Below, in pieces: positions 5,251 through 37,750 of a DNA stretch of 42,387 bases; positions within the stretch are counted from its first letter, which is position 1, and each line of letters opens with the position of its first letter. The notes under the pieces are model-generated. The model made no database searches. It was given only the letters and a program-made list of their open reading frames with translations, and was not told the origin of the DNA. Source of the DNA: a virus; IMG/VR virus record IMGVR_UViG_3300021405_000028, positions 1 to 42,387 of that record; one strand, 5' to 3'. The position numbers and the translations under genes are program-made.

Positions 5251-6735
5251 CTACATGCGCTCGCGGATTTCTTGAACGCGGTTAGTTAATTTCCGAAAAT
5301 CTGCATGGCTATCGATTGCTTCATGCATCACGCCCGTAAACAACTGCTCAAGATGATGCACGGGGGCAACCTTCGGGGGATTGAGCAAGAGCACTTGCGC
5401 CTGTATGGTCTGCGCCGCGTCAAGTAACGCCACGGCGCTCAAAGACTGCACTTGCGTACCGCGCTCTTGAATGGATAATTGCGAGAGCTTGGCGCGCTTC
5501 ACGACTTCGGCAATGACCGCCGGGATATTCCCCGCCAGCACTTCGCCCACCGCTTTTAAGTCAATGCCCGCCTCCAGCGCATCCCCCGCGTACACATGAA
5601 TAAGCCGCTCAATGGCTTTTGCATCTGGCGCGGTTACATCGATTACCGCATCAAGCCGGCCTGGGCGCAGCATGGCCGGGTGAATGGCTTTTATCTCATT
5701 GGTTGTTAGCACCACAATGATATTGCTGGTTTTGGAGTCAATGCCATCTATGGTGTTTAAGATCGCATCCATATCCTCGGAACGCTCGCCCGTGACTTCC
5801 CGGTCGATATCCTCGCAAAAGATCACGCATGCAGGCGACTGGTACTGGCGCGCAAATTCGATAGCGTAGGAAAGCTCCGTTGCCTTTTGGATATAGACAA
5901 AGGTGATGCCCGATTGCACGGCGAGCTTAGAGGCGACATGCGCAATTAGGGTCTTACCTGTGCCGAAGGTCCCCCCGAGTAATACACCGCGCTTGACCGG
6001 GATATTATTGGCAAGACAATCGGCGGTGCGCGTGATGGGCGTGAATAGATTGGTATTGACCGCCCGCTCTAGCTGCTCAGAGAGCACGAGCATATTTTCA
6101 TTAACCGCGTCCGTATCCAAGAATTTGGGCATGGGTACGGTAAGCTCATCCCCTTCCTCGTCTAGGAAGGCCACGCGCATGGCTTTGCCGCGATAGATCG
6201 AATTTTCTTTGATTTCTTTGCGCAGTTCATCGAAAAGGCCGCGCACAACTTTTTCATCCCGGCGCAAAACCTTCGCGCTGATCGCAAAAAGATACCGATT
6301 GTCTTTGCGCCCCACCCCGCAATCAAGGTGCCCTTTGACATTGGGGAGTAAAAAGCGGCCCCATGGCACTTGCCTGACCTGGCCATAGGCCACATCGATG
6401 TTAATTAGCTGCGGCGGGTTATCGCCAAAGAATCCAGGCGTCGGCACGGCGGGAGACCACCCGTAACGGCGGTTTAGCACCGTATCGAGCATGCACGCGC
6501 CATCGGCGGGGAAGGCATCGAATACCTCTTGCACTAAGGTTTCTTGGGATTCGTACACCTTGCGCCGCTCGATAAGCTCTGCGGCTTGCTGCAAGGTCAT
6601 CCCTTCTGGTAGCACCAATTTTTCGCCCTTATAGACGATATCGGCCGCCGCAATATCCTTTTTCGGCTTCTCTTTCTTGCCGCTCGCAGCGTCGGCTAAG
6701 GTTAATTCAATTGTGTTGGTTGAAATATTCGCCAC
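5251..6735 (-). CDS. AAA+ ATPase with unassigned N-terminal domain (494 aa)
   Basis: The C-terminal half is a classical AAA module. It has Walker A GGTFGTGKT at residues 254-262, Walker B CVIFCED at 303-309, sensor 1 TTN at 345-347, and the second region of homology with LRPGRLD at 356-362, giving arginine-finger candidates Arg357 and Arg360. This is the FtsH/p97/Rubisco-activase-like branch rather than a helicase loader. The first 230 residues carry a Lys-rich leader and a domain I do not recognise (YGWSPAVPTPGFFG; VKGHLDCGVGRKDNRYLF). No membrane segment and no HExxH protease motif are visible, so it is not FtsH. The start is GTG 6735, preceded by AGGGG. The role is unknown: protein remodelling in replication, assembly or host takeover is possible. 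Confidence 0.85.
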   Translation of the reverse strand: MANISTNTIELTLADAASGKKEKPKKDIAAADIVYKGEKLVLPEGMTLQQAAELIERRKVYESQETLVQEVFDAFPADGACMLDTVLNRRYGWSPAVPTPGFFGDNPPQLINIDVAYGQVRQVPWGRFLLPNVKGHLDCGVGRKDNRYLFAISAKVLRRDEKVVRGLFDELRKEIKENSIYRGKAMRVAFLDEEGDELTVPMPKFLDTDAVNENMLVLSEQLERAVNTNLFTPITRTADCLANNIPVKRGVLLGGTFGTGKTLIAHVASKLAVQSGITFVYIQKATELSYAIEFARQYQSPACVIFCEDIDREVTGERSEDMDAILNTIDGIDSKTSNIIVVLTTNEIKAIHPAMLRPGRLDAVIDVTAPDAKAIERLIHVYAGDALEAGIDLKAVGEVLAGNIPAVIAEVVKRAKLSQLSIQERGTQVQSLSAVALLDAAQTIQAQVLLLNPPKVAPVHHLEQLFTGVMHEAIDSHADFRKLTNRVQEIRERM

Positions 6736-28192: not shown

Positions 28193-28360
28193 GTGCGTTA
28201 CGTGTTTAAAGTCCTGTTAGCCCTTTCGGTATTTTTCGTGCTCTGGTTCCTTGGTGAAAATGTGATCTTCGCGGCAGGCGCAACCTTCATTTTTTTACTG
28301 TTAATAAAAATTATGACTGCGCTCGGGTCAATCATTTTTAATACCCGCGCCAGGCGCTAA
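28193..28360 (+). CDS. 55-aa two-helix membrane protein on the opposite strand (candidate superinfection-exclusion gene)
   Basis: This plus-strand frame (GTG 28193 or GTG 28202, TAA 28358-28360) lies in the only gap of the late structural operon and overlaps the end of the ejection gene by 33 bases. The product has two clear transmembrane segments (FKVLLALSVFFVLWFL and VIFAAGATFIFLLLIKIM), then a basic tail (NTRARR). AAGGGA lies just upstream. P22 carries its immI genes, including the membrane superinfection exclusion protein SieA, between gene 16 and the tailspike. By position and topology this may be an analogue; it is not a sequence homologue that I can see. Confidence 0.6.
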   Translation: MRYVFKVLLALSVFFVLWFLGENVIFAAGATFIFLLLIKIMTALGSIIFNTRARR

Positions 28361-30208
28361 CGCTTCGCGCACCTTGCGCGCTTCGGCTTGCTTTGCCGCT
28401 ACATCGCGCAAGGCAGAACCCACCTTGATCGGGCCCGGAATAAAGTTAAGCGCCTGTTCCGCCGTGCCCTTGATGCCGCGCCCGAGCGCCGCCGTAAATG
28501 TATTCGAGTTATTCACGTAGGAACCCTTGGGCTGCATCTGCTCATACCGCGCAACGTCGCCCAAATTTCTAACATGGGTTGCGGTTTGCTGGTCGAGTAA
28601 TTGATCCATGTGCGGCTCTAATTCGGCGCGCGCTTTATTGAAACCCGATTGACTGAAATTTCCCGCATTCGTATATGCGTCGATTCCAGCCTTGTTTTTA
28701 AGGTAATTCAGCGCCGCCGCTTTTATTGTGCCGCTGGCGTCCGGGTCATTCGCGAACTTCCTTTGCATTTCTTGCAAGCCCGATTTAGTCCCGCCAAGTA
28801 CATATTTTTGGACGAACTTGTTAGCAAGCGGCGAATCGCCTTTTGGCGCATCATCATTAACGGCCGCCTCATATGCTGGGTCTCTACCGATAGCGTCAAA
28901 ACGTGCTTTTGCAGCACTGCGCGCCACGTCGGCCAGTGGCTTAAGCGCGGCAGCGCCGCCGGTCAACGGCAATTGTTCGAGCGTATTGCGCGCAATATTT
29001 ATTGCCGCCTTGGCGTTACCGTCACCCGCGCGGTCTGCTTTGCGAACAGCGGCGGCAAGATCGGTGCGTAAGTTCTCGAAATTATCAAACGTGAAATTCC
29101 CACCTTCGCGCAAGTCGTCCAAAGTGCCGCGAATCTCGGGGGGCAGATAACGCGCCTTGTTTGCTTTCTTGAGTGCCGCATCAGCCGAATTCACATAGCT
29201 ATTGCCATCAACTGGCAGGTCCCCACCGTTAGCGTCGGCAAGCGCTTTGTATTTGGCGGAAATATCGGCCTTTATGGGCTCGTCATAATCTTTGTACTTA
29301 TCTAGGAGCGCTTGCCCGTTTTGCACATGGTCATTGCCTACCGCAGTCGGCGCAGCTTCGCGGCGTATTTCATCCAAGTTTTCTATAAGATTTTGATTTT
29401 GACTTGCAAAGCGGTCACGCAATGGGGCACCAGCCTCACCGCCGCGCGCGTTTTGCTCATCAGAAATTAAACCCGGATCTTGCCGCGCCTGCCCCTTGGT
29501 TAATTCCGCAGGGATCGGCAAGGAATCCGCTTGTATATGCCTATTCAATGCGCCGCTATGAATATCACCGCCACTTTCCACAACGGCTTGCTGTATCCCT
29601 GGGGATGCTTTGCTTACATCAGTCGCAACGCCAGCGGCGCCGAGGGATTGCGCTTCATGCGCCTTATTGACGATATCCTGCGCCGCTATTGTCGGCGTTT
29701 CTGCCGCTCTAGTGACGCGGCCCAAGGCCTCTGGTATTAGAAACTGAGGCACATTTGAAAGCGTATTCGCCGCAGAGGCTAAAACGGGGCTGCCAGTTTT
29801 ATCTAAAACCCATTCGCCCGCCGCTTCGCCTTCTTTTTGTCCAAGATAGGATGCGCCCTTACTCAAAAGTCCCGCTACGTCGCGACCCCCTTGCGTACTT
29901 GGCTCATAAGTAAACGCGCGCGCAACTTTGGCCACGTCCTCGGGGTTTTTATCCAGCCCCATCGCATAGCGAAAGCCACCGAGCAAAGTACCGGCCCCCG
30001 CGCTCGCTACTGACGCTAATCCCTGCGACCCTTCGGCTAAAGCAGTCGCCTCTTCTGCTTCCGGGTTGTAAAGCGGCTCGTCTTTGCTTTCTTTCTTCTT
30101 TGGCGGCGGGTAGGCAGCATCTAAATCATCGATGGGTTGCGGGGCTGCTGATGCTTGCGCAGGACCATAGGCCGCATCTAGATCACTATCGCTACTGTCC
30201 AATGACAT
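28328..30208 (-). CDS. Ejection protein, P22 gp16-like by position (626 aa)
   Basis: A long, mainly helical, Ala/Asp/Lys-rich protein (RDVAGLLSKGASYLGQKEGE; NFENLRTDLAAAVRKADRAG). It is the last of three adjacent proteins with the size and order of the P22 ejection set (gp7, gp20, gp16), and ends in a basic helix (DVAAKQAEARKVREALAPG). Such proteins leave the capsid ahead of the DNA and form a conduit across the periplasm and inner membrane. A repetitive acidic N-terminus (SSDSDLDAAYG / IDDLDAAYP) is seen. Confidence 0.72.
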   Translation of the reverse strand: MSLDSSDSDLDAAYGPAQASAAPQPIDDLDAAYPPPKKKESKDEPLYNPEAEEATALAEGSQGLASVASAGAGTLLGGFRYAMGLDKNPEDVAKVARAFTYEPSTQGGRDVAGLLSKGASYLGQKEGEAAGEWVLDKTGSPVLASAANTLSNVPQFLIPEALGRVTRAAETPTIAAQDIVNKAHEAQSLGAAGVATDVSKASPGIQQAVVESGGDIHSGALNRHIQADSLPIPAELTKGQARQDPGLISDEQNARGGEAGAPLRDRFASQNQNLIENLDEIRREAAPTAVGNDHVQNGQALLDKYKDYDEPIKADISAKYKALADANGGDLPVDGNSYVNSADAALKKANKARYLPPEIRGTLDDLREGGNFTFDNFENLRTDLAAAVRKADRAGDGNAKAAINIARNTLEQLPLTGGAAALKPLADVARSAAKARFDAIGRDPAYEAAVNDDAPKGDSPLANKFVQKYVLGGTKSGLQEMQRKFANDPDASGTIKAAALNYLKNKAGIDAYTNAGNFSQSGFNKARAELEPHMDQLLDQQTATHVRNLGDVARYEQMQPKGSYVNNSNTFTAALGRGIKGTAEQALNFIPGPIKVGSALRDVAAKQAEARKVREALAPGAGIKND

Positions 30209-31550
30209 TCAGGTGACCTAAGCCCTTTAGTTTATTTGTGAATTCTTCCGCCTGCGCGCGCGTGCTGAAATTGCGTTTATAGAATTCCTGCCGCGCCGCT
30301 CCTTTAGGCAGCGCATTGAATTCATGCATCAACGGATCAGTGGTGCTTGTTAAAACATCGTCCGCATGCTGGAACCCGCGCAAGCTCGCGTCCTTCGCCT
30401 TGACTGAATTTAAAAGCTCGCCGCGCGCTAGATCTTGGCGTGCAACGCCGCGCGTATAGTCCATTGCGGTATGTATTGTCCGGGTATCGCTCGTCGCATC
30501 TGGGAACCCTGACAATATGGTTTCACTGCGTTTATCAGACGGCGCCGCAGCGGTTGCCGATGCCTGAATTTTTCCTAAATCCTTTTTAAGCAACTGCCGC
30601 GCATACGTATCGGAAGTCATGCCGGCGGCCGCCGCTGCTTTTGAAATTGCATCGGCGAATTTGCCCGAGTGGACTTGGTCGGCCAAGTCATCCACTTGTT
30701 GCGACAACTGTACCGTCTGTTTAGCTGGCGCAACTGCCGCGCTTACTTGATTCGCTCGATCAAAGTCACTGCCCGCAGCTTCCTGTACGCGCTTGGTAGT
30801 TGCCGCGACGGTGGGCGCGCTCGGGTTAAGATCTGCGCCAGCTTGCGGCGGCGCCGAGAGGGCGCCAGTGCGAACATTGCGGTTAACAATTTGTTGCGCG
30901 GCGTTAGAGGTCTGCTGTGGCTGCGTTTGTGTGTTGCGCTCTTGCGCAGACGCATTAGCTAAATTCAGCGCATAGAGCGCATCGTTTAAGTGCTCGGGTT
31001 TCGCGTCAGCGATCTTGCTGTAAATGCCGGCAACGCGCGCAGCCTCGGGCGATTGCTTACTGAAATCTTGGAACGCTTGGGTTATTTTATTTTTGGCGCG
31101 CGCAGCCGCGTCCGGGTCTTTGTCTGCCGCCTGAACGTCAGGGTCCCCCATTAACCCTGATACGTTGTTAAATAATTGTTGCTGCGTATTCGCATCAAGC
31201 GTCTGTAGGCTCTGCGCGTTTTGCAATTGCCCTTGCTTGATTTGAACTAAATGGTTATCAACCGCCTGTTTAGATAAACCGTTTAAGCCCTTATACGCGG
31301 CAGTTCCATGCACTCCATTAATGTCTGTGGTGCCATCGGGCGCAATGTTATCGCTAGGGTCCCAAGCGGTAAAAAAGTCCTGTACACCCTTGGTGGCCTC
31401 GGTTTGCATTTGCGCTTGTTGCAATTTCTGCGCTTGAATCTGCAATTCTTGCCGCTGCGATTGAATCCCGAGGATATTGGACAACTGCCCAAAGGTATCG
31501 GGCGTCTTGATCGGCGCCGTCATGGCCCCTATAGCTTGATAATCAGCCAT
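30192..31550 (-). CDS. Ejection protein, P22 gp20-like by position (452 aa)
   Basis: Highly Gln/Ala-rich coiled-coil protein (ILGIQSQRQELQIQAQKLQQ; NAQSLQTLDANTQQQLFNNV). Composition and location between the gp7-like and gp16-like proteins suggest the middle ejection protein. It contains a Gln/Thr-rich region (ERNTQTQPQQTSNAAQQIVN) and has no enzyme motif. ATG 31550 is the natural start, immediately after the preceding stop. Confidence 0.7.
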   Translation of the reverse strand: MADYQAIGAMTAPIKTPDTFGQLSNILGIQSQRQELQIQAQKLQQAQMQTEATKGVQDFFTAWDPSDNIAPDGTTDINGVHGTAAYKGLNGLSKQAVDNHLVQIKQGQLQNAQSLQTLDANTQQQLFNNVSGLMGDPDVQAADKDPDAAARAKNKITQAFQDFSKQSPEAARVAGIYSKIADAKPEHLNDALYALNLANASAQERNTQTQPQQTSNAAQQIVNRNVRTGALSAPPQAGADLNPSAPTVAATTKRVQEAAGSDFDRANQVSAAVAPAKQTVQLSQQVDDLADQVHSGKFADAISKAAAAAGMTSDTYARQLLKKDLGKIQASATAAAPSDKRSETILSGFPDATSDTRTIHTAMDYTRGVARQDLARGELLNSVKAKDASLRGFQHADDVLTSTTDPLMHEFNALPKGAARQEFYKRNFSTRAQAEEFTNKLKGLGHLNVIGQ

Positions 31551-32381
31551 TTACGGCGGCCCCAAGTTGCCATAGGTGTTATCGCCCGTGCCCGGATTCG
31601 GCGTAAGCGTTTGAGGGGGTGACCATCCGCCACCGCCACCGCCTAAGTTCGCTTGCAACCATGGTAGGGCTTGACTCGTCCCATAAGCGCCGGCCGCGCT
31701 CGATAGGCCGCCCGCGATTGCATTAGCGCCGCCGATGATCCCGCCAGCCTGGGCGGTACCGATGTTGCTTGCCGTCTGCCCGATGCTCGACGCGTAATTG
31801 CTGCCGCCCGTCGCCTGATTGCTCGCCGCGCCTTGGCCTAGCTGTGCAACCCCCATCAAGCGGTTGTAGGTGTTTGACTGCTGGGTTTGATATTGCTGAA
31901 ACGCATTATTAAAAGCTGTGTTGGCGTAATTTTGATTAAAGCTCGTCAAGTCCTTCAAGGCCGCGCCCGAGAGTGCGCCCGCGCCGCTCGCATCCTGGTT
32001 TAATGTTCCCTGCGCGCCTTGCTGCATCTGGAATTGATACGCTGGCGACATGTTGTGAAACTGATCGATAGTAAAGGGCGAATTCAAGGAACCGAAACCG
32101 CCGGCCGGCGAGCTTGCCGCCGTCTGCCCTGTTTGCGCGCTGTTTTGCCCAGGCGTGCCCGTACCCAGTAGATAATTTAATTGACTGGTTGCGCCCTGCC
32201 CCGCCTGCAAAAAGGGTTGCTCATTGCTGAGCGTTTGGTTGTACATGCCTTGCTGAAATTGCAAAGCATTGCGAGCGGCGCCGGCTTGCGTATTGGCAGC
32301 GGACTGCGCGGCATTGCTCTCAATGATGGCCCCGCCGATGGCTGCAACCCCACCGACGACAGCAACGGCAATTGCGCTCAC
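31551..32381 (-). CDS. Ejection protein, P22 gp7-like by position (276 aa)
   Basis: The N-terminus has an Ala/Gly/Val hydrophobic segment (AIAVAVVGGVAAIGGAIIES), then a Gln/Asn/Ala-rich helical body (NTAFNNAFQQYQTQQSNTYN) and a Gly/Pro-rich end (LGGGGGGWSPPQTL). Many phage gp7-like DNA transfer proteins begin with such a small hydrophobic helix. GTG 32381 overlaps the preceding TGA. Confidence 0.68.
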   Translation of the reverse strand: MSAIAVAVVGGVAAIGGAIIESNAAQSAANTQAGAARNALQFQQGMYNQTLSNEQPFLQAGQGATSQLNYLLGTGTPGQNSAQTGQTAASSPAGGFGSLNSPFTIDQFHNMSPAYQFQMQQGAQGTLNQDASGAGALSGAALKDLTSFNQNYANTAFNNAFQQYQTQQSNTYNRLMGVAQLGQGAASNQATGGSNYASSIGQTASNIGTAQAGGIIGGANAIAGGLSSAAGAYGTSQALPWLQANLGGGGGGWSPPQTLTPNPGTGDNTYGNLGPP

Positions 32382-33193
32382 TGCGATAGTCTCTTATTTA
32401 AATTGAGCGCCGCGCGGTAATCTACGGTAATTTCGTCCCCAGGCTGCCCGCCCAATGAACCGCCAATCGGGCGCAGCGCCACTAAAAATATGTCGCCGTT
32501 ACCATCACTCACCATTTGCGCATTGGGTTGGCTTGAGTGATTGGTATATCGGCCGGCGGGGGTGCGCTTCCCTTCAATGCGCGCGGGCGCAATGACTTCA
32601 CCGAAAGCAATATCAGCGGTGCAAATCAACCCTTTACCCTCAATGCTGGATTCTCCTATCTGGAATTTATAAGCGCCCATCGGAAAGGTAATTAGATCGG
32701 TTGTATTCTCTGACTCGGCGCGCACGTACTCGGGCGTCAAGTTCTGTTCAAATAGAAATTGACCAAAGTCGTCCCGGTCAGCTTCCCGGTCCACTTTGAA
32801 AGCGCGCTGCAATTCGTTGTGCGTCTCAGTCTTATCGAGCAAGAACGCTTCTAGTTTTTCTACGTCGGTTTCCGTAGTGGCATAGACGTTTAGCCATACG
32901 GTACGCTCATGCACATAGGCGACCTTGCGCCCAGGTTGCGCGACACAAACCACAGGCGCGCACAGTTCCGAGCGCGTGCCATCGGTGTTAAACATGGTCA
33001 TTCGACCCGATAACATGATGTTTAAGTGCGCATGCCTGTGATGGTGTCCCATGACAAACGTATTGGCTTGCAGCGTTACTTGCCGGATATAAATCCCAGG
33101 CGCAAAGGCGTGTACGCAATCCGCCGGGACTTGCGGCAAGCCTTGGAGTAAACCTTCTAGATTGTTTAGTGTCGGTTTGAGTACCGCACTCAT
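32378..33193 (-). CDS. Cupin plus SET-domain fusion protein (271 aa), possible lysine methyltransferase
   Basis: Residues 27-105 form a cupin: FVMGHHHRHAHLNIMLSGRM with His50-52, His54 and His56 as metal ligands, then APVVCVAQPGRKVAYVHE. Residues 170-262 form a SET domain: KFQIGESSIEGKGLICTADI, GEVIAPARIEGKR, the hallmark RYTNHSSQPN (Asn218, His219), and the ending GDEITVDYR with catalytic-type Tyr259. SET enzymes transfer methyl groups from S-adenosylmethionine to protein lysines. A phage SET gene placed among virion genes may modify a virion or host protein. The N-terminal cupin could bind a metal or only act structurally. The fold is clear; the activity is inferred. Confidence 0.8.
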   Translation of the reverse strand: MSAVLKPTLNNLEGLLQGLPQVPADCVHAFAPGIYIRQVTLQANTFVMGHHHRHAHLNIMLSGRMTMFNTDGTRSELCAPVVCVAQPGRKVAYVHERTVWLNVYATTETDVEKLEAFLLDKTETHNELQRAFKVDREADRDDFGQFLFEQNLTPEYVRAESENTTDLITFPMGAYKFQIGESSIEGKGLICTADIAFGEVIAPARIEGKRTPAGRYTNHSSQPNAQMVSDGNGDIFLVALRPIGGSLGGQPGDEITVDYRAALNLNKRLSQ

Positions 33194-33534
33194 GTCGGCA
33201 CAAACACCATAGAGGGCTTGCCCGTGTAAGTGACTTTTAAAATATCGTTCTGCGCCATGGGGAACACACCCGCCGTTTGGCCGGTTAGGTAGAACGTGCC
33301 TGCGGTTCTCGAAAACATCACATTAGAAACGGTACCCCCTGAGATAATTACGAAGCCTTTCATGCCTGCCGTATATGAGAACGGCGAACCACCGATATTT
33401 ATCGCTAGCTCATTACTCGGCGGGGTGCCCAATTCGTTTTGCTGAAAATACCGATACCACTTAGAGTTATTGCGCGTGCCTTCGCTTAGTTGTTCGGTAA
33501 AGGTCGGCGCGGTGCGAAACTGCGTCGTACTCAC
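33190..33534 (-). CDS. Small virion-region protein (114 aa), beta-rich
   Basis: GTG 33534 overlaps the gp10-like TGA, and the stop overlaps the next ATG. The product (SNELAINIGGSPFSYTAGMK, GFVIISGGTVSNVMFSRTAG, FYLTGQTAGVFPMAQNDILK) ends YTGKPSMVFVPT and resembles small beta-sandwich or decoration proteins of phages. It is probably a virion component of the tail region. P22 gp26 is a coiled-coil needle, so this is not an obvious gp26. Confidence 0.62.
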   Translation of the reverse strand: MSTTQFRTAPTFTEQLSEGTRNNSKWYRYFQQNELGTPPSNELAINIGGSPFSYTAGMKGFVIISGGTVSNVMFSRTAGTFYLTGQTAGVFPMAQNDILKVTYTGKPSMVFVPT

Positions 33535-35267
33535 GAGCCCTCCGCGAAGAGCGTTGCGCCAATAATGTCCCGTTGTACGGGATCGGAAATTACCGCCTCA
33601 TATACCCGGTCACGCGCGCGACCCAATTGACGCCACATCGCGCGATTTTTCGTAACGCCCGCAAGGCCGATAGTCGTCCAATGCTCATTACTCCATGTAA
33701 ACGCGCCATCGTCCGACCACCGAAGCATCACCTGGGGGTTGTTACCTTGACCTGTTTGCAGGCCAACACCTGGGGTAAATTCAATCTGCAATTGCGAATG
33801 AAAAACTCTTTCACGGTTTTCCTTTTCCCATATCGGCGGGGTGCGCCTGAGCGCCCGCAAGGGGTTGCCTGCATCGGTAAAAAATGCCCTAGACATTTGA
33901 TGTAGCTGGCCGGTTTGATAGTCCCCGACAATGCGTATGTCGCCAAAATCCATATAGCAATTAGAGCGGTGTCGATGATAGACAGCCGCTATGGGGTCCC
34001 AACTTAAGCGCTTGGCCCAGGTCTGCGAGACGAAGTCGTAAGCCCATGTAACATCGGCTGTGGGGAAAATGAGCATGTAAAACAAGTGCCCCTCTTCCTC
34101 ATAGCAATATCCAATAGCATCGCTTACAACCGGGTATTGTGTGATTGCATGCTCAACCGCATGATTACTAATCCGCGTGAAAGAATATTGATTCGTGCAG
34201 ACAACAATGTTTTGGCCCTGTTCATTCTTCCCAAGCCATACCAATTGAGCCCCGCCGCGTGAGATTGAATATACGGCCGCACAACCGATCTGCGGGCCCA
34301 CCCCTGGCAATCGCTGGAATGCAAAGTTAGTGCCCCCCGCGTTAAACCAGACTTCGGAGGTACGCTCGCCGATTAGCCATAGCTCGCGGTTGTTTTCGTA
34401 TAGCGTCACCAAGTTATCGGTGCTTGAATCCTTGAGCGCAAAGAAGAGCCCAGGAAAGAGCATTGAATAAGGGCTCGGGCCCGTGGTGTAAAAGGTGCGT
34501 GTATTCGGGCGGTTTAGAATTAACCAGCCCTCAATAAAGGCGACGCGCTGCGCGCCTAAAAAGCCTGCGTCCGTGATGCGTCCGAATACTGGAATATTTA
34601 AACTGATTGTATCGGTGAAACTGTTTCCCGATGCAAGAGCGCTCATCGTAATCGTAAGCCCGATAGTATCGACGCTGACGATTGTCGTGCCGATAGGAAT
34701 GACACCGCCGATATCGGTAAGCGTCGGGGTATTCGCGATAATGAGGCCGTTCGGCAAGTTGCCGGGTAGCGTAATAATCGCCGAACCGCTTGTGAGCGAG
34801 CCCGTAAAGCTCGCCACTTGCGGGGCGCCAGCAATCAAATAGTAATATCCGAACGTGCCATCAACGATTAGAACGAAGCCACCTAAGCCGTTTTGGATCA
34901 CGCCGTTATCGCGCATCACCACGGGGCCGCTATTGGTGAGCAAGGTGCCCACAGCGCTAGCTGAGAATGTCGGCGGGCTCGTCTGTGTCGCAGGCGTTGC
35001 GATCACGACTAGATACAGCGTGTTATTCGCAACGACTAACGCTTGCTGCCCACCCGGTAGAACCCAAGCGCCGCGTACTTGGCCCGTCTGCGTACTAACT
35101 ACCGGATTTAAACCAGGCGCGCCAAGTAGTGCATTGGGCATTTTTGCCGCCTCATGCGGGTCGCGCTCTAGATAGAAGTTGATGCAGTCCTGCGCGTTTT
35201 GTAAGGTCATAGGCGCCTGATACGAATCGCCTACGAAGCCAAAATCGCCGCCCTTAAACAAAGCCAC
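33531..35267 (-). CDS. Packaged-DNA stabilisation protein, gp10-like tail hub (578 aa)
   Basis: The start (MALFKGGDFGFVGDSYQAPM, then AQDCINFYLERDP) and later QRVAFIEGWLILNRPNTRTF, GSVWF-like SEVWFNAGGTNFAFQRLPGV and the C-terminal WSDDGAFTWSNEHWTTIGLA are typical of P22 gp10 family proteins. These form a hexameric tail hub that plugs the portal. It is about 100 residues longer than P22 gp10 (472 aa). Most of the excess is a GT/S-rich beta insert at about 154-228. The start appears to be GTG 35267. Confidence 0.85.
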   Translation of the reverse strand: MALFKGGDFGFVGDSYQAPMTLQNAQDCINFYLERDPHEAAKMPNALLGAPGLNPVVSTQTGQVRGAWVLPGGQQALVVANNTLYLVVIATPATQTSPPTFSASAVGTLLTNSGPVVMRDNGVIQNGLGGFVLIVDGTFGYYYLIAGAPQVASFTGSLTSGSAIITLPGNLPNGLIIANTPTLTDIGGVIPIGTTIVSVDTIGLTITMSALASGNSFTDTISLNIPVFGRITDAGFLGAQRVAFIEGWLILNRPNTRTFYTTGPSPYSMLFPGLFFALKDSSTDNLVTLYENNRELWLIGERTSEVWFNAGGTNFAFQRLPGVGPQIGCAAVYSISRGGAQLVWLGKNEQGQNIVVCTNQYSFTRISNHAVEHAITQYPVVSDAIGYCYEEEGHLFYMLIFPTADVTWAYDFVSQTWAKRLSWDPIAAVYHRHRSNCYMDFGDIRIVGDYQTGQLHQMSRAFFTDAGNPLRALRRTPPIWEKENRERVFHSQLQIEFTPGVGLQTGQGNNPQVMLRWSDDGAFTWSNEHWTTIGLAGVTKNRAMWRQLGRARDRVYEAVISDPVQRDIIGATLFAEGS

Positions 35268-36243
35268 CCTTCATAATCCAACCCGCGTCTTGCACCTGGG
35301 AACGCACAATCGAGCTATCGAATTTGAGCGTGACCACGGGCGTATCATTCACCGCTTTAATTAGTTCCTTAGCTTCCTTGGCCTGCGTAATGAGCAACGG
35401 GCTGGGGGTCTTGCCGTAGTTGGGCGCAAGCTCAAGGGCAAGTAATTTCTTTAAGGCGCGCGTGTAGCCTTGCGGGAGCGAGTACGCCGCGCCCGTGGTA
35501 GCCCATTCACTGATGATTAGATCGGTGAATATGTGCGCCTGATACGCCGCGCCGGGATTGGGATAAACGAATAATTGCCCGTAGGGGTAAGTGGGCTGGT
35601 ATGCCGCAACATAGGGCCATGGCCCCTGTACATTCTTTAGTAACTCTTCCTTGTATCGGTCGAAAGAGACCATTTCAAAGGAATAATCTAAGTTGCTATT
35701 GCCTGACGTGGTTGCACGGGTAAAGCCATCACGAAAACGCAAAGGCCGGCTAATGGGAATGTTGCCTGGGACTGTGTAGGTAATCGTGTCGGGATTAATG
35801 GCGGGTGTGAATAGTGCGGGCGCCGACATGGTCACTGTCTGCGCAATGGGGTTAAACGCGGTTACCGTGGTGGGCACGGGAATAAGCGCAGTGCCCGAAG
35901 GAAAGGCGGTGCCTAAATCAGTGAGCGTCCCGCCGATGGCAATATTTGAGGGGAATTGCGTGACGGCGGTAATGATGTTGCTAGCGCCCGTGACAGTGCC
36001 TACAAAAGTACCGCCCACAGGGTTGCCGACACTGTATTGATACTGCCCGGCGACCCAGTTAAAAATCGTCTCGACTTGCGTAAAAACAAAGCATTGATCT
36101 TGGCTTAGCGAATCAATCAAGTCGTTTAGGACATTCAAGCCCGTTTGTGCATCCTGGGCGGCAAGTGCTTCACCTGGGCTATACGAATTGATATTGAGTA
36201 GCGCGCCAGTGATGATATCGAGCGCTGTGGTTGCGCTTGCCAT
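35254..36243 (-). CDS. Tail accessory/head-to-tail adaptor, gp4-like (329 aa)
   Basis: The N-terminal part (LDIITGALLNINSYSPGEAL, then LNVLNDLIDSLSQD) and C-terminal YTRALKKLLALELAPNYGKT, plus PLLITQAKEAKELIKAVNDT, match podophage head-to-tail adaptors. A beta-rich insert at about 80-158 (GTFVGTVTGASNIITAV... AQTVTMSAPALF) is absent from P22 gp4. It is co-translated with gp10-like, as in P22. It bridges portal and gp10 and probably completes the DNA exit channel. Confidence 0.8.
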   Translation of the reverse strand: MASATTALDIITGALLNINSYSPGEALAAQDAQTGLNVLNDLIDSLSQDQCFVFTQVETIFNWVAGQYQYSVGNPVGGTFVGTVTGASNIITAVTQFPSNIAIGGTLTDLGTAFPSGTALIPVPTTVTAFNPIAQTVTMSAPALFTPAINPDTITYTVPGNIPISRPLRFRDGFTRATTSGNSNLDYSFEMVSFDRYKEELLKNVQGPWPYVAAYQPTYPYGQLFVYPNPGAAYQAHIFTDLIISEWATTGAAYSLPQGYTRALKKLLALELAPNYGKTPSPLLITQAKEAKELIKAVNDTPVVTLKFDSSIVRSQVQDAGWIMKGGFV

Positions 36244-36479
36244 TAGACCGCGAAGTACGGCACTTTAAATTGCGTGCCTGCCACGTTGATTATTAAATAC
36301 GCTTGCACTGTCGCAGGTAATGCCGCGCCCGCCCCTGCCGTCGCGGTTGCCGCCGTTGTGCTGCCTATGCCAACTTGGGCCGCCGCGACGGTGAGCGCTG
36401 CCGTCGTAAGAGTGAGATTACCAACCGTGCCAGAACCCCCAGAGCTAAACCCGCCGTTGCCTGGGCTCTTGATACTCAC
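36243..36479 (-). CDS. Small Gly/Thr/Ala-rich virion-region protein (78 aa)
   Basis: GTG 36479 overlaps the preceding TGA. The product (KSPGNGGFSSGGSGTVGN, then LTLTTAALTVAAAQVGIGST) ends in LIINVAGTQFKVPYFAV. It is probably a small surface or decoration protein; the composition resembles other proteins of this cluster. No domain recognised. Confidence 0.58.
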   Translation of the reverse strand: MSIKSPGNGGFSSGGSGTVGNLTLTTAALTVAAAQVGIGSTTAATATAGAGAALPATVQAYLIINVAGTQFKVPYFAV

Positions 36480-36835
36480 AGCCCTTCACCACGCGTAAAT
36501 GTGACGCTGCCGGCCGTGGCGCCGGCCGCTAAGATCACTGCCGCGCCGTTGACCTCCGCTGCAACGCTCACAACCACCACGGCGCCGGGTGCGACGGGGT
36601 AGCTTGCCGCGATGGTTGCGGCTGCTACGGCGCCCACCACGCCAAAATTGACGTACGCCCAAGCGGTGGTTTGGTTTGCTATCTGAATTTGCACCACTTG
36701 GTTATTTAAGGTGCCAGCAAAAGCGGTGGTAAAAGCATTGGCAACCGAAGCCGCAACGGTGGTCGAGGCTGAAAGAGTGCCCGCAGTTGTACCCGTCGCT
36801 GGGGTATAGAGCGGTTGGAATGCGCGCGTTTCCAT
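36476..36835 (-). CDS. Small decoration-like protein (119 aa)
   Basis: The product (METRAFQPLYTPATGTTAGT, then VVQIQIANQTTAWAYVNFGV, then PGAVVVVSVAAEVNGAAVIL) has a beta-sandwich pattern and low charge, like capsid decoration or fibre-base proteins. It lies in the run of small genes between coat and gp4-like. AAGGCG precedes the ATG. Confidence 0.58.
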   Translation of the reverse strand: METRAFQPLYTPATGTTAGTLSASTTVAASVANAFTTAFAGTLNNQVVQIQIANQTTAWAYVNFGVVGAVAAATIAASYPVAPGAVVVVSVAAEVNGAAVILAAGATAGSVTFTRGEGL

Positions 36836-36846
36836 TTTGGCGCGCC

Positions 36847-37197
36847 TTAAAACACTGCGTTAGGAAGTGCGGCTAATCCGCCATCAACAACGTTTTCCGC
36901 GCGCGTTACTTCAATAACAAACGGCTGCGGCGGCGTGCCGTTAACCGCTGCAATTGTTGTATTACTCCACAGGAATGTCAGCACGCCCGAAGCGCTTACA
37001 AAGACATTCTCTACAGAAATTCCTGCAACCGTGGTTAGCTGATTCCAGCTAATTAAGTCGCCGATCTGCGTACCCGGCACAGTAAAGGTTTGCGTAACAG
37101 TTGAACTTGCGGGTAAGTTCGGCACCGTGACCAAAGGTAAAGAAAGCATTTGCGCAAATAATTCGTTCCCGCGTTGTGCGGTTGCTCCACCTGGCAT
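36847..37197 (-). CDS. Small decoration-like protein (116 aa)
   Basis: ATG 37197 has a good AGGAG site. The product (NELFAQMLSLPLVTVPNLPA, then FTVPGTQIGDLISWNQLTTV, then VSASGVLTFLWSNTTIAAVN) is beta-rich with a hydrophobic core pattern of a small sandwich domain. It is probably a virion surface component. It lies just after an intrinsic terminator. Confidence 0.6.
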   Translation of the reverse strand: MPGGATAQRGNELFAQMLSLPLVTVPNLPASSTVTQTFTVPGTQIGDLISWNQLTTVAGISVENVFVSASGVLTFLWSNTTIAAVNGTPPQPFVIEVTRAENVVDGGLAALPNAVF

Positions 37198-37210
37198 GTT
37201 CGATAACTCC

Positions 37211-37241
37211 TAAAAAAAAGGGCCCGCTTCTACCGGGCCCG
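37211..37241 (-). terminator. Intrinsic terminator downstream of coat region
   Basis: GGGCCCG (37220-37226) and CGGGCCC (37234-37240) form a GC-rich hairpin with a 7-base loop. On the minus strand a run of eight T follows (complement of 37212-37219). It lies between the gene ending at 37274 and the one starting at 37197. It would lower transcription downstream of the coat genes unless the polymerase is antiterminated. Confidence 0.88.
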
Positions 37242-37273
37242 TAATTGGGGGCAAAACATCAACCAGAAATGTT

Positions 37274-37750
37274 TTAAGAAATATCGAAGCCGTACAAAAA
37301 GACGTCAACCGTACCAGTCGCAACCGTGGTGCCGATGTTCACAAAAACGGTTTGCGCCGTTTGAGAGACCGCCGTAACCGTGGTCGCCACCACAACCGCC
37401 GCCGTCTGCGAGGTATTGCCCGCAAGTGCCGCCGCCGTTTTGATCGCAGTACCACCGCCGGCCGCTGCCGTGAAAAGCCCTAGCGTTGCCGTCGCAATAC
37501 TTCCCGACACCCCCGCCAAGAGTGAGTTAGAAGTAACCATTTGCGTCGGCAGCCAAGAGGTTGAGTTAATGATCGGCATGAGTGCCGCATCGCCAGCACC
37601 CGCGACCGACACGCCACGCGCCACCCCGAGCAAGCGCAAGGCGTTGCCGCCTTGCCCTGGCACGGTGGGACCCGCGATGTTGACGGGCGTTAGCACCGCT
37701 AATTGGGAAGGGGTCGAGGTAACCGCCGGCCCCAGATTTACGTTAGCCAT
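37274..37750 (-). CDS. Decoration-like virion protein next to coat (158 aa)
   Basis: AGGAG sits nine bases before ATG 37750. The Ala/Thr/Val/Gly-rich product (MPIINSTSWLPTQMVTSNSL, then LGLFTAAAGGGTAIKTAAAL, then TVFVNIGTTVATGTVDVFLY) is beta-rich. Being the first gene after coat and before a terminator, it is expected to be abundant, as head decoration proteins are. The assignment rests on context and composition. Confidence 0.62.
   Translation of the reverse strand: MANVNLGPAVTSTPSQLAVLTPVNIAGPTVPGQGGNALRLLGVARGVSVAGAGDAALMPIINSTSWLPTQMVTSNSLLAGVSGSIATATLGLFTAAAGGGTAIKTAAALAGNTSQTAAVVVATTVTAVSQTAQTVFVNIGTTVATGTVDVFLYGFDIS

What the first reader, a model, noticed from the sequence alone, without database searches (positions are those of the whole stretch)
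32378..33193. Cupin-SET fusion among virion genes
A clear SET signature (EGKG, RYTNHSSQPN, GDEITVDYR) is fused to a His-rich cupin and lies between the gp10-like hub and the ejection proteins, translationally coupled on both sides. SET enzymes methylate protein lysines and are mainly eukaryotic, with scattered bacterial and phage examples. The location suggests modification of a virion or ejected protein, or delivery of the enzyme into the host. I do not know of a described role for such a phage enzyme.
Basis: partly seen in the sequence, partly recalled or inferred. Interest (0 to 1): 0.75.

Follow-up and report, generated by a model that had tools for sequence, protein, structure and literature searches.

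The report
Cupin–SET methyltransferase in phage morphogenesis module
A short-tailed phage carries, right beside the genes for the proteins it injects into bacteria, a gene that fuses a small barrel domain to a lysine-methylating enzyme of the kind that marks histones in animals and plants; hundreds of related viruses keep the same arrangement, so phages probably methylate a protein while building or using their particle, although the target is unknown.

Summary
It passes Pfam's SET cut-off. The predicted structure (pLDDT 93.6) has a cupin (~25–105), a helical leader (~109–161) and a SET domain (173–260). It is not a one-off: at least 561 IMG/VR stretches encode relatives. In 155 of 157 distinct sequences GxG precedes R(Y/F)xNH by exactly 26 residues; bacterial stand-alone SETs mostly have 56. 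This is a minimal SET core without SET-I, its catalytic residues almost invariant. A gp7-like ejection gene lies directly downstream in 80 of 92 loci. The cupin alone holds that place in many podophages, misleadingly called "short tail fiber". SET is fused after or before the cupin, or is a separate overlapping gene; SET-bearing cupins are not one clade (AU p 2e-6). In BPP-1-like phages the same cupin neighbours a GNAT acetyltransferase. Best reading: the cupin is an assembly/docking factor that brings a protein-lysine methyltransferase to virion or ejection proteins. Activity, virion presence and substrate are untested; no lysine in gp7-, gp10- or gp4-like proteins is specifically conserved in SET-bearing phages. 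New variant of a known kind.

The parts
32378..33193 (-). cupin-SET gene, 271 aa (PHROG 34170, unknown function)
32879..33121 (-). cupin (RmlC-like) domain, residues ~25-105
   Evidence: AF2 strands 25-105, Foldseek cupins, PHROG 24280/12032
32711..32869 (-). helical leader, residues ~109-161 (DDFxxfLxExgLTxexVrxxSENttD); its second half (from ~138) travels with SET also when SET is on its own or precedes the cupin
32414..32677 (-). SET core, residues 173-260: SxIxGxG (182-188), RTxxGRYxNHSxxPN (210-224), EITVDY (254-259, putative catalytic Tyr259)
33190..33534 (-). 114-aa gene directly upstream, overlaps cupin-SET by 4 bases; function unknown, in the position of the P22 needle gene 26
33531..35267 (-). 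gp10-like tail hub (PHROG 578 head closure Hc3)
31551..32381 (-). gp7-like DNA-ejection protein (PHROG 598), overlaps cupin-SET by 4 bases; contains one lysine
30192..31550 (-). 452-aa protein in the gp20 position
   Evidence: position only
28328..30208 (-). 626-aa protein in the gp16 position
   Evidence: position only

Best explanation
A podophage morphogenesis gene whose N-terminal, probably non-enzymatic cupin is an assembly/docking factor that works with the ejection-protein module, and whose C-terminal minimal SET domain is an active SAM-dependent protein-lysine methyltransferase. The cupin holds the SET domain against a late virion protein (most likely one of the ejection or hub proteins made from the same operon), which is methylated before or during packaging into the particle. 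Shown: the domains, motifs, conserved gene place, repeated association with SET or GNAT. Inferred: catalytic activity, the substrate class, and timing.
For: SET domain above curated cut-off, homologous to MLL-type SET in both halves, model pLDDT 93.6 with MLL1 SET and cupins as structural neighbours. In 88 aligned fusions S182, G186, G188, R210, T211, G214, R215, N218, H219, E254 are invariant and Y259 is kept in 87: the pattern expected of an active enzyme. gp7-like gene directly downstream in 80/92 SET-bearing loci and in 83/102 cupin-only loci, so the cupin belongs to the ejection module whether or not SET is attached. The SET module is found after the cupin, before it (10 loci), as a separate overlapping gene (L104), and alone before a gp7-like gene (L103): repeated association suggests joint function. 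SET-bearing cupins are not one clade (AU p 2.4e-6). The same cupin sits next to a GNAT acetyltransferase in 71 of 77 BPP-1-like loci (Pfam), suggesting that the cupin repeatedly partners amine-modifying enzymes.
Against: No lysine column in gp7-, gp10- or gp4-like proteins is more conserved in SET-bearing than in SET-lacking phages; those columns that exist are less conserved. The window's gp7-like protein has a single lysine. SET-I, normally part of the substrate groove, is missing. Many cupin-only phages have neither SET nor an adjacent GNAT, so modification is not essential to the slot. No virion proteomics were found for any member. GNAT could simply be a separate late gene.
Confidence: 0.5

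Rival explanations
1. Host-directed effector: the cupin-SET protein is made late or carried in the virion and methylates a host protein (for example a ribosomal, nucleoid or envelope protein).
For: Nearly invariant catalytic residues without a matching conserved lysine in the phage neighbours tested; ejection-module position would allow delivery.
Against: Strict linkage with gp7-like and hub genes in SET-bearing loci, and of the cupin alone in SET-lacking loci, points to morphogenesis rather than host takeover; late operon position.
Confidence: 0.22
2. The SET domain no longer methylates and serves as a structural or SAM-sensing part of an assembly protein.
For: SET-I is absent in all members; the core spacing is rigid, as for a structural piece.
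Against: GxG, NH(S/A)xxPN and the catalytic tyrosine are kept in almost all members over large divergence; a purely structural domain would not need Tyr259.
Confidence: 0.12
3. Short tail fibre/adhesin, as annotated in several genomes: the protein is an external receptor-binding part.
For: PHROG labels 'short tail fiber protein' and 'tail fiber adhesin' for the cupin part.
Against: The label appears to be propagated between annotations; it is found in P22-, T7- and BPP-1-type podophages of unrelated hosts, inside the ejection or portal module. The one paper found that mentions a 'short tail fiber' with an RmlC-like cupin (phiAP1 ORF 43) says no experimental validation was done (PMC8703784). 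An intracellular SAM enzyme makes little sense on a tail tip.
Confidence: 0.06
4. Writer-eraser pair: the cupin is a JmjC-like demethylase and the SET domain the methylase.
For: JmjC demethylases have a cupin barrel (established knowledge).
Against: No HxD/E...H iron triad: position 52 mostly Gln, the Glu position is His56, no second-motif His; the BPP-1 homologue has none of them.
Confidence: 0.04

Closest known systems
PHROG 34170 (unknown function), incl. Pseudoalteromonas phage PH1 gp49, Rhodoferax phage P26218 gp30
   Same: Same two-domain protein, E=4e-74; same neighbours
   Different: No function or domain make-up is recorded for it; this study adds domain assignment, order variants and the GNAT link
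Cellular SET lysine methyltransferases (KMT2/MLL; PBCV-1 vSET; bacterial stand-alone SET)
   Same: SET-N and SET-C motifs and fold
   Different: No SET-I: 26 residues between GxG and RYxNH instead of mostly 56 in 36 bacterial SETs measured; no post-SET cysteines; fused to a cupin
Bordetella phage BPP-1 Bbp24-Bbp23
   Same: Bbp23 is a homologue of the cupin; overlapping gene for an amine-modifying enzyme
   Different: Enzyme is a GNAT acetyltransferase, separate gene, and the pair lies by terminase/portal, not by gp7
P22 gene 14 / T7 gene 13
   Same: Same place: between tail hub/needle genes and the first ejection-protein gene
   Different: Different families (DUF2824/PHROG 651; PF11090/PHROG 308), no detectable homology to the cupin, SET or phage GNATs

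Membership tests
SET-domain protein-lysine methyltransferase | Profile match above curated cut-off | tested here: met
   Pfam PF00856 30.4 bits vs 22.4
SET-domain protein-lysine methyltransferase | SAM-binding GxG and NHSxxPN, catalytic Tyr in (E)xTxDY | tested here: met
   Invariant or nearly so in 88 fusions; window has all
SET-domain protein-lysine methyltransferase | SET fold | tested here: met
   AF2 pLDDT 93.6; MLL1 SET 6u9m E=4e-4, 24% identity
SET-domain protein-lysine methyltransferase | SET-I insert | tested here: not met
   26-residue spacing in all 155 measurable sequences; bacterial SETs 46-58. SET-I is variable in the family, so this marks a subfamily rather than exclusion
SET-domain protein-lysine methyltransferase | Methyltransferase activity on lysine | not testable with these tools
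   needs biochemistry
Cupin superfamily | Cupin barrel fold | tested here: met
   Foldseek matches to many RmlC-like cupins, E~1e-4
Cupin superfamily | Two conserved motifs with 3-His/1-Glu metal site | tested here: not met
   Partial first motif only, no second-motif His; fits a non-enzymatic cupin
P22 gp14 / T7 gp13 assembly factors | Gene slot before first ejection gene | tested here: met
P22 gp14 / T7 gp13 assembly factors | Sequence homology | tested here: not met
   separate Pfam/PHROG families
Short tail fibre protein (PHROG 12032/24280) | Sequence family of the cupin part | tested here: met
   E=6e-24 / 3e-25
Short tail fibre protein (PHROG 12032/24280) | Being a fibre or adhesin on the virion | not testable with these tools
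   no structural or proteomic data found

The most novel reading that the evidence does not exclude
Podophages use a shared cupin as a docking platform at the ejection-protein or portal assembly site, to which different protein-modifying enzymes (SET lysine methyltransferase, GNAT acetyltransferase) are attached; lysine methylation or acetylation of virion proteins would be a previously unrecognised step in phage assembly or genome ejection.
Probability: 0.35. Interest if true: 0.85.

Novelty: new variant of a known kind. Interest (0 to 1): 0.66.

Why it matters
SET methyltransferases are mostly studied as chromatin writers of eukaryotes. Hundreds of environmental podophages with a minimal SET welded to a conserved morphogenesis cupin would give a tractable system for protein methylation in phage assembly, and would explain a widespread gene now filed as 'short tail fiber' or 'hypothetical'. 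The recurrence of SET and GNAT beside one cupin makes a clear, testable prediction: modified amines on virion or ejection proteins.

Tried and rejected
1) gp7 lysine as the universal target: the window's gp7-like protein has one lysine (K143 in SGAALKDL), but relatives vary and no column is SET-specific. 2) T7 gp13 and P22 gp14 as relatives of the phage GNATs: hhalign probabilities about 1% (single sequences on one side, so weak as a negative); T7 gp13 has only a weak spermidine acetyltransferase hit (E 0.39) and P22 gp14 a putative glyoxalase hit (E 0.008). Only the shared slot is claimed. 3) Literature: nothing found in the open-access library on phage cupin-SET proteins or on Bbp23 function. 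4) Search with a wide cupin alignment (A2) failed for lack of conserved stretches; narrower queries were used. 5) L422 looked like SET without cupin but its ORF runs off the contig; L293, L297, L298 looked SET-less but run off their stored ends and were removed before counting.

Full report
OBSERVATION. The gene occupies 32378–33193 on the minus strand (protein P0001). Read on the plus strand the interval is closed. It overlaps the 114-aa gene upstream (33190–33534) and the gp7-like gene downstream (31551–32381) by four bases each. The local order, all minus strand, is portal (PHROG 156), scaffold, coat, gp4-like, gp10-like hub (PHROG 578), 114 aa, cupin-SET, gp7-like ejection protein (PHROG 598), 452 aa, 626 aa, fibres. 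This is the order of P22 genes 10-26-14-7-20-16 with the cupin-SET gene in the place of gene 14, and of T7 gene 13 between 12 and 14.

DOMAINS. Pfam finds SET (E=5e-7, above cut-off). The full protein is PHROG 34170 (E=4e-74, unknown function), and the N-terminal part matches PHROGs 24280 and 12032, labelled tail fiber adhesin and short tail fiber. Foldseek against PDB returns many cupins (E about 1e-4) and MLL1 SET (E=4e-4, 24% identity). A profile of the SET module against PDB sequences gives KMT2B at 6e-14, matching the SET-N and SET-C halves as two separate stretches: the part in between, SET-I, is missing.

CONSERVATION. In 88 distinct fusions S182, G186, G188, R210, T211, G214, R215, N218, H219 and E254 are invariant; Y259 and N224 are kept in 87. 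Across 157 distinct SET domains the spacing from GxG to R(Y/F)xNH is exactly 26 residues in all 155 where both motifs are recognised, while 36 bacterial stand-alone SETs fetched with the same search have 46 to 58, 31 of them 56 (motif ends were defined by slightly different patterns, so the difference is about 30 residues, give or take one or two). So this is a well-bounded minimal SET subfamily. The cupin has no full metal site: position 52 is mostly Gln and the second-motif His is absent.

DISTRIBUTION AND PLACE. Eight phage records in the INPHARED set match over at least 80% of the protein, including Rhodoferax phage P26218 and Pseudoalteromonas phage PH1. Six more fusion loci lie in bacterial or archaeal assemblies, one of them in a 369-kb Paraburkholderia contig. 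In 80 of 92 SET-bearing loci a gp7-like gene is found and is, with few mis-called starts, immediately downstream; the gp10-like gene is upstream in 73. The cupin without SET is as common: 70 of 80, 29 of 39 and 80 of 80 loci in three searches (three of the 29 run off their stretch), and outside the BPP-1 group the next gene is gp7-like in 83 of 102. The cupin thus belongs to the ejection module independently of SET.

REPEATED ASSOCIATION. SET follows the cupin in most loci but precedes it in ten (L227, L231, L233, L234, L380, L382, L386, L392, L394, L442). In Paraburkholderia ferrariae (L104) cupin and SET are separate overlapping genes, and in a Comamonadaceae contig (L103) SET stands alone shortly before a gp7-like gene. 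On a tree of 171 cupin domains SET presence needs about 11 changes after removing truncated rows, and holding SET-bearing cupins together is rejected (AU p=2.4e-6). The tree has few columns and many open forks, so the number of changes is approximate, and gain cannot be told from loss.

THE GNAT LINK. In BPP-1 the cupin homologue Bbp23 is overlapped by Bbp24, a GNAT acetyltransferase (Pfam E=7e-7); Acinetobacter phage MD-2021a has the same pair. Of 77 BPP-1-like loci with room upstream, 71 have an adjacent GNAT gene. Of about 95 SET-bearing loci with room, one (L058) has an adjacent GNAT, in a terminase–GNAT–cupin-SET–portal order; L007 has one a little downstream. GNAT- and SET-partnered cupins are largely different lineages, so the apparent alternation is partly ancestry.

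MECHANISM. The cupin is most simply a non-enzymatic assembly or docking factor for the ejection (or portal) module; SET, a lysine methyltransferase by sequence, is tethered to it. The likeliest substrates are proteins met in that complex. A direct test on alignments did not find a lysine that is specific to SET-bearing phages in gp7-, gp10- or gp4-like proteins; the 452- and 626-aa proteins, which are lysine-rich (5.8 and 6.2%), are too diverged for the test. The substrate therefore stays open, and a host target is the chief rival.

NOVELTY. No paper on such a protein was found in the open-access library, which does not hold most subscription journals. Automatic annotation has noticed SET in single genomes (MW202744.1; A0A6J5PTS6). 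I rate it a new variant of a known kind: a minimal SET subfamily with a fixed phage partner and place.

Noticed in passing
L104:2977-12077 (Paraburkholderia ferrariae contig): Replication-type genes, then cupin and SET as overlapping genes, then an integrase, with no capsid or ejection genes recognised in the stretch read: a phage remnant or a satellite-like element.
   Followed up: partly
L103:5487-13094 (Comamonadaceae ALPHA2B): SET-module gene without a cupin placed between replication genes and gp7/gp20/gp16-like genes.
   Followed up: partly
L058:1014-6164 and L007:5941-7590: Loci that hold both a GNAT gene and a cupin-SET fusion; L058 has the BPP-1 order terminase-GNAT-cupin-portal.
   Followed up: partly
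L008:3809-5240 (MW202557.1): The public record leaves the cupin-SET gene unannotated and instead carries an opposite-strand gene called contryphan-vn-tryptophan just beside its start, probably an annotation error.
   Followed up: no
window 31551-37750: Several virion genes encode almost lysine-free proteins (119 aa and 116 aa: none; 158 aa and gp7-like: one), while scaffold, portal and the 452/626-aa proteins are lysine-rich.
   Followed up: partly
window 5251-6735: 494-aa AAA+ ATPase-like protein, very strong match to PHROG 10440 of unknown function (E=4e-199).
   Followed up: no
gp7-, gp10- and gp4-like alignments of SET-bearing vs SET-lacking loci: Every well-populated lysine column is less conserved in SET-bearing phages; base composition or alignment noise may explain it.
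   Followed up: no
L177:8911-9366 (P22 gene 14): P22 gp14 has a weak sequence match to a putative glyoxalase structure (3ct8, E=0.008).
   Followed up: no
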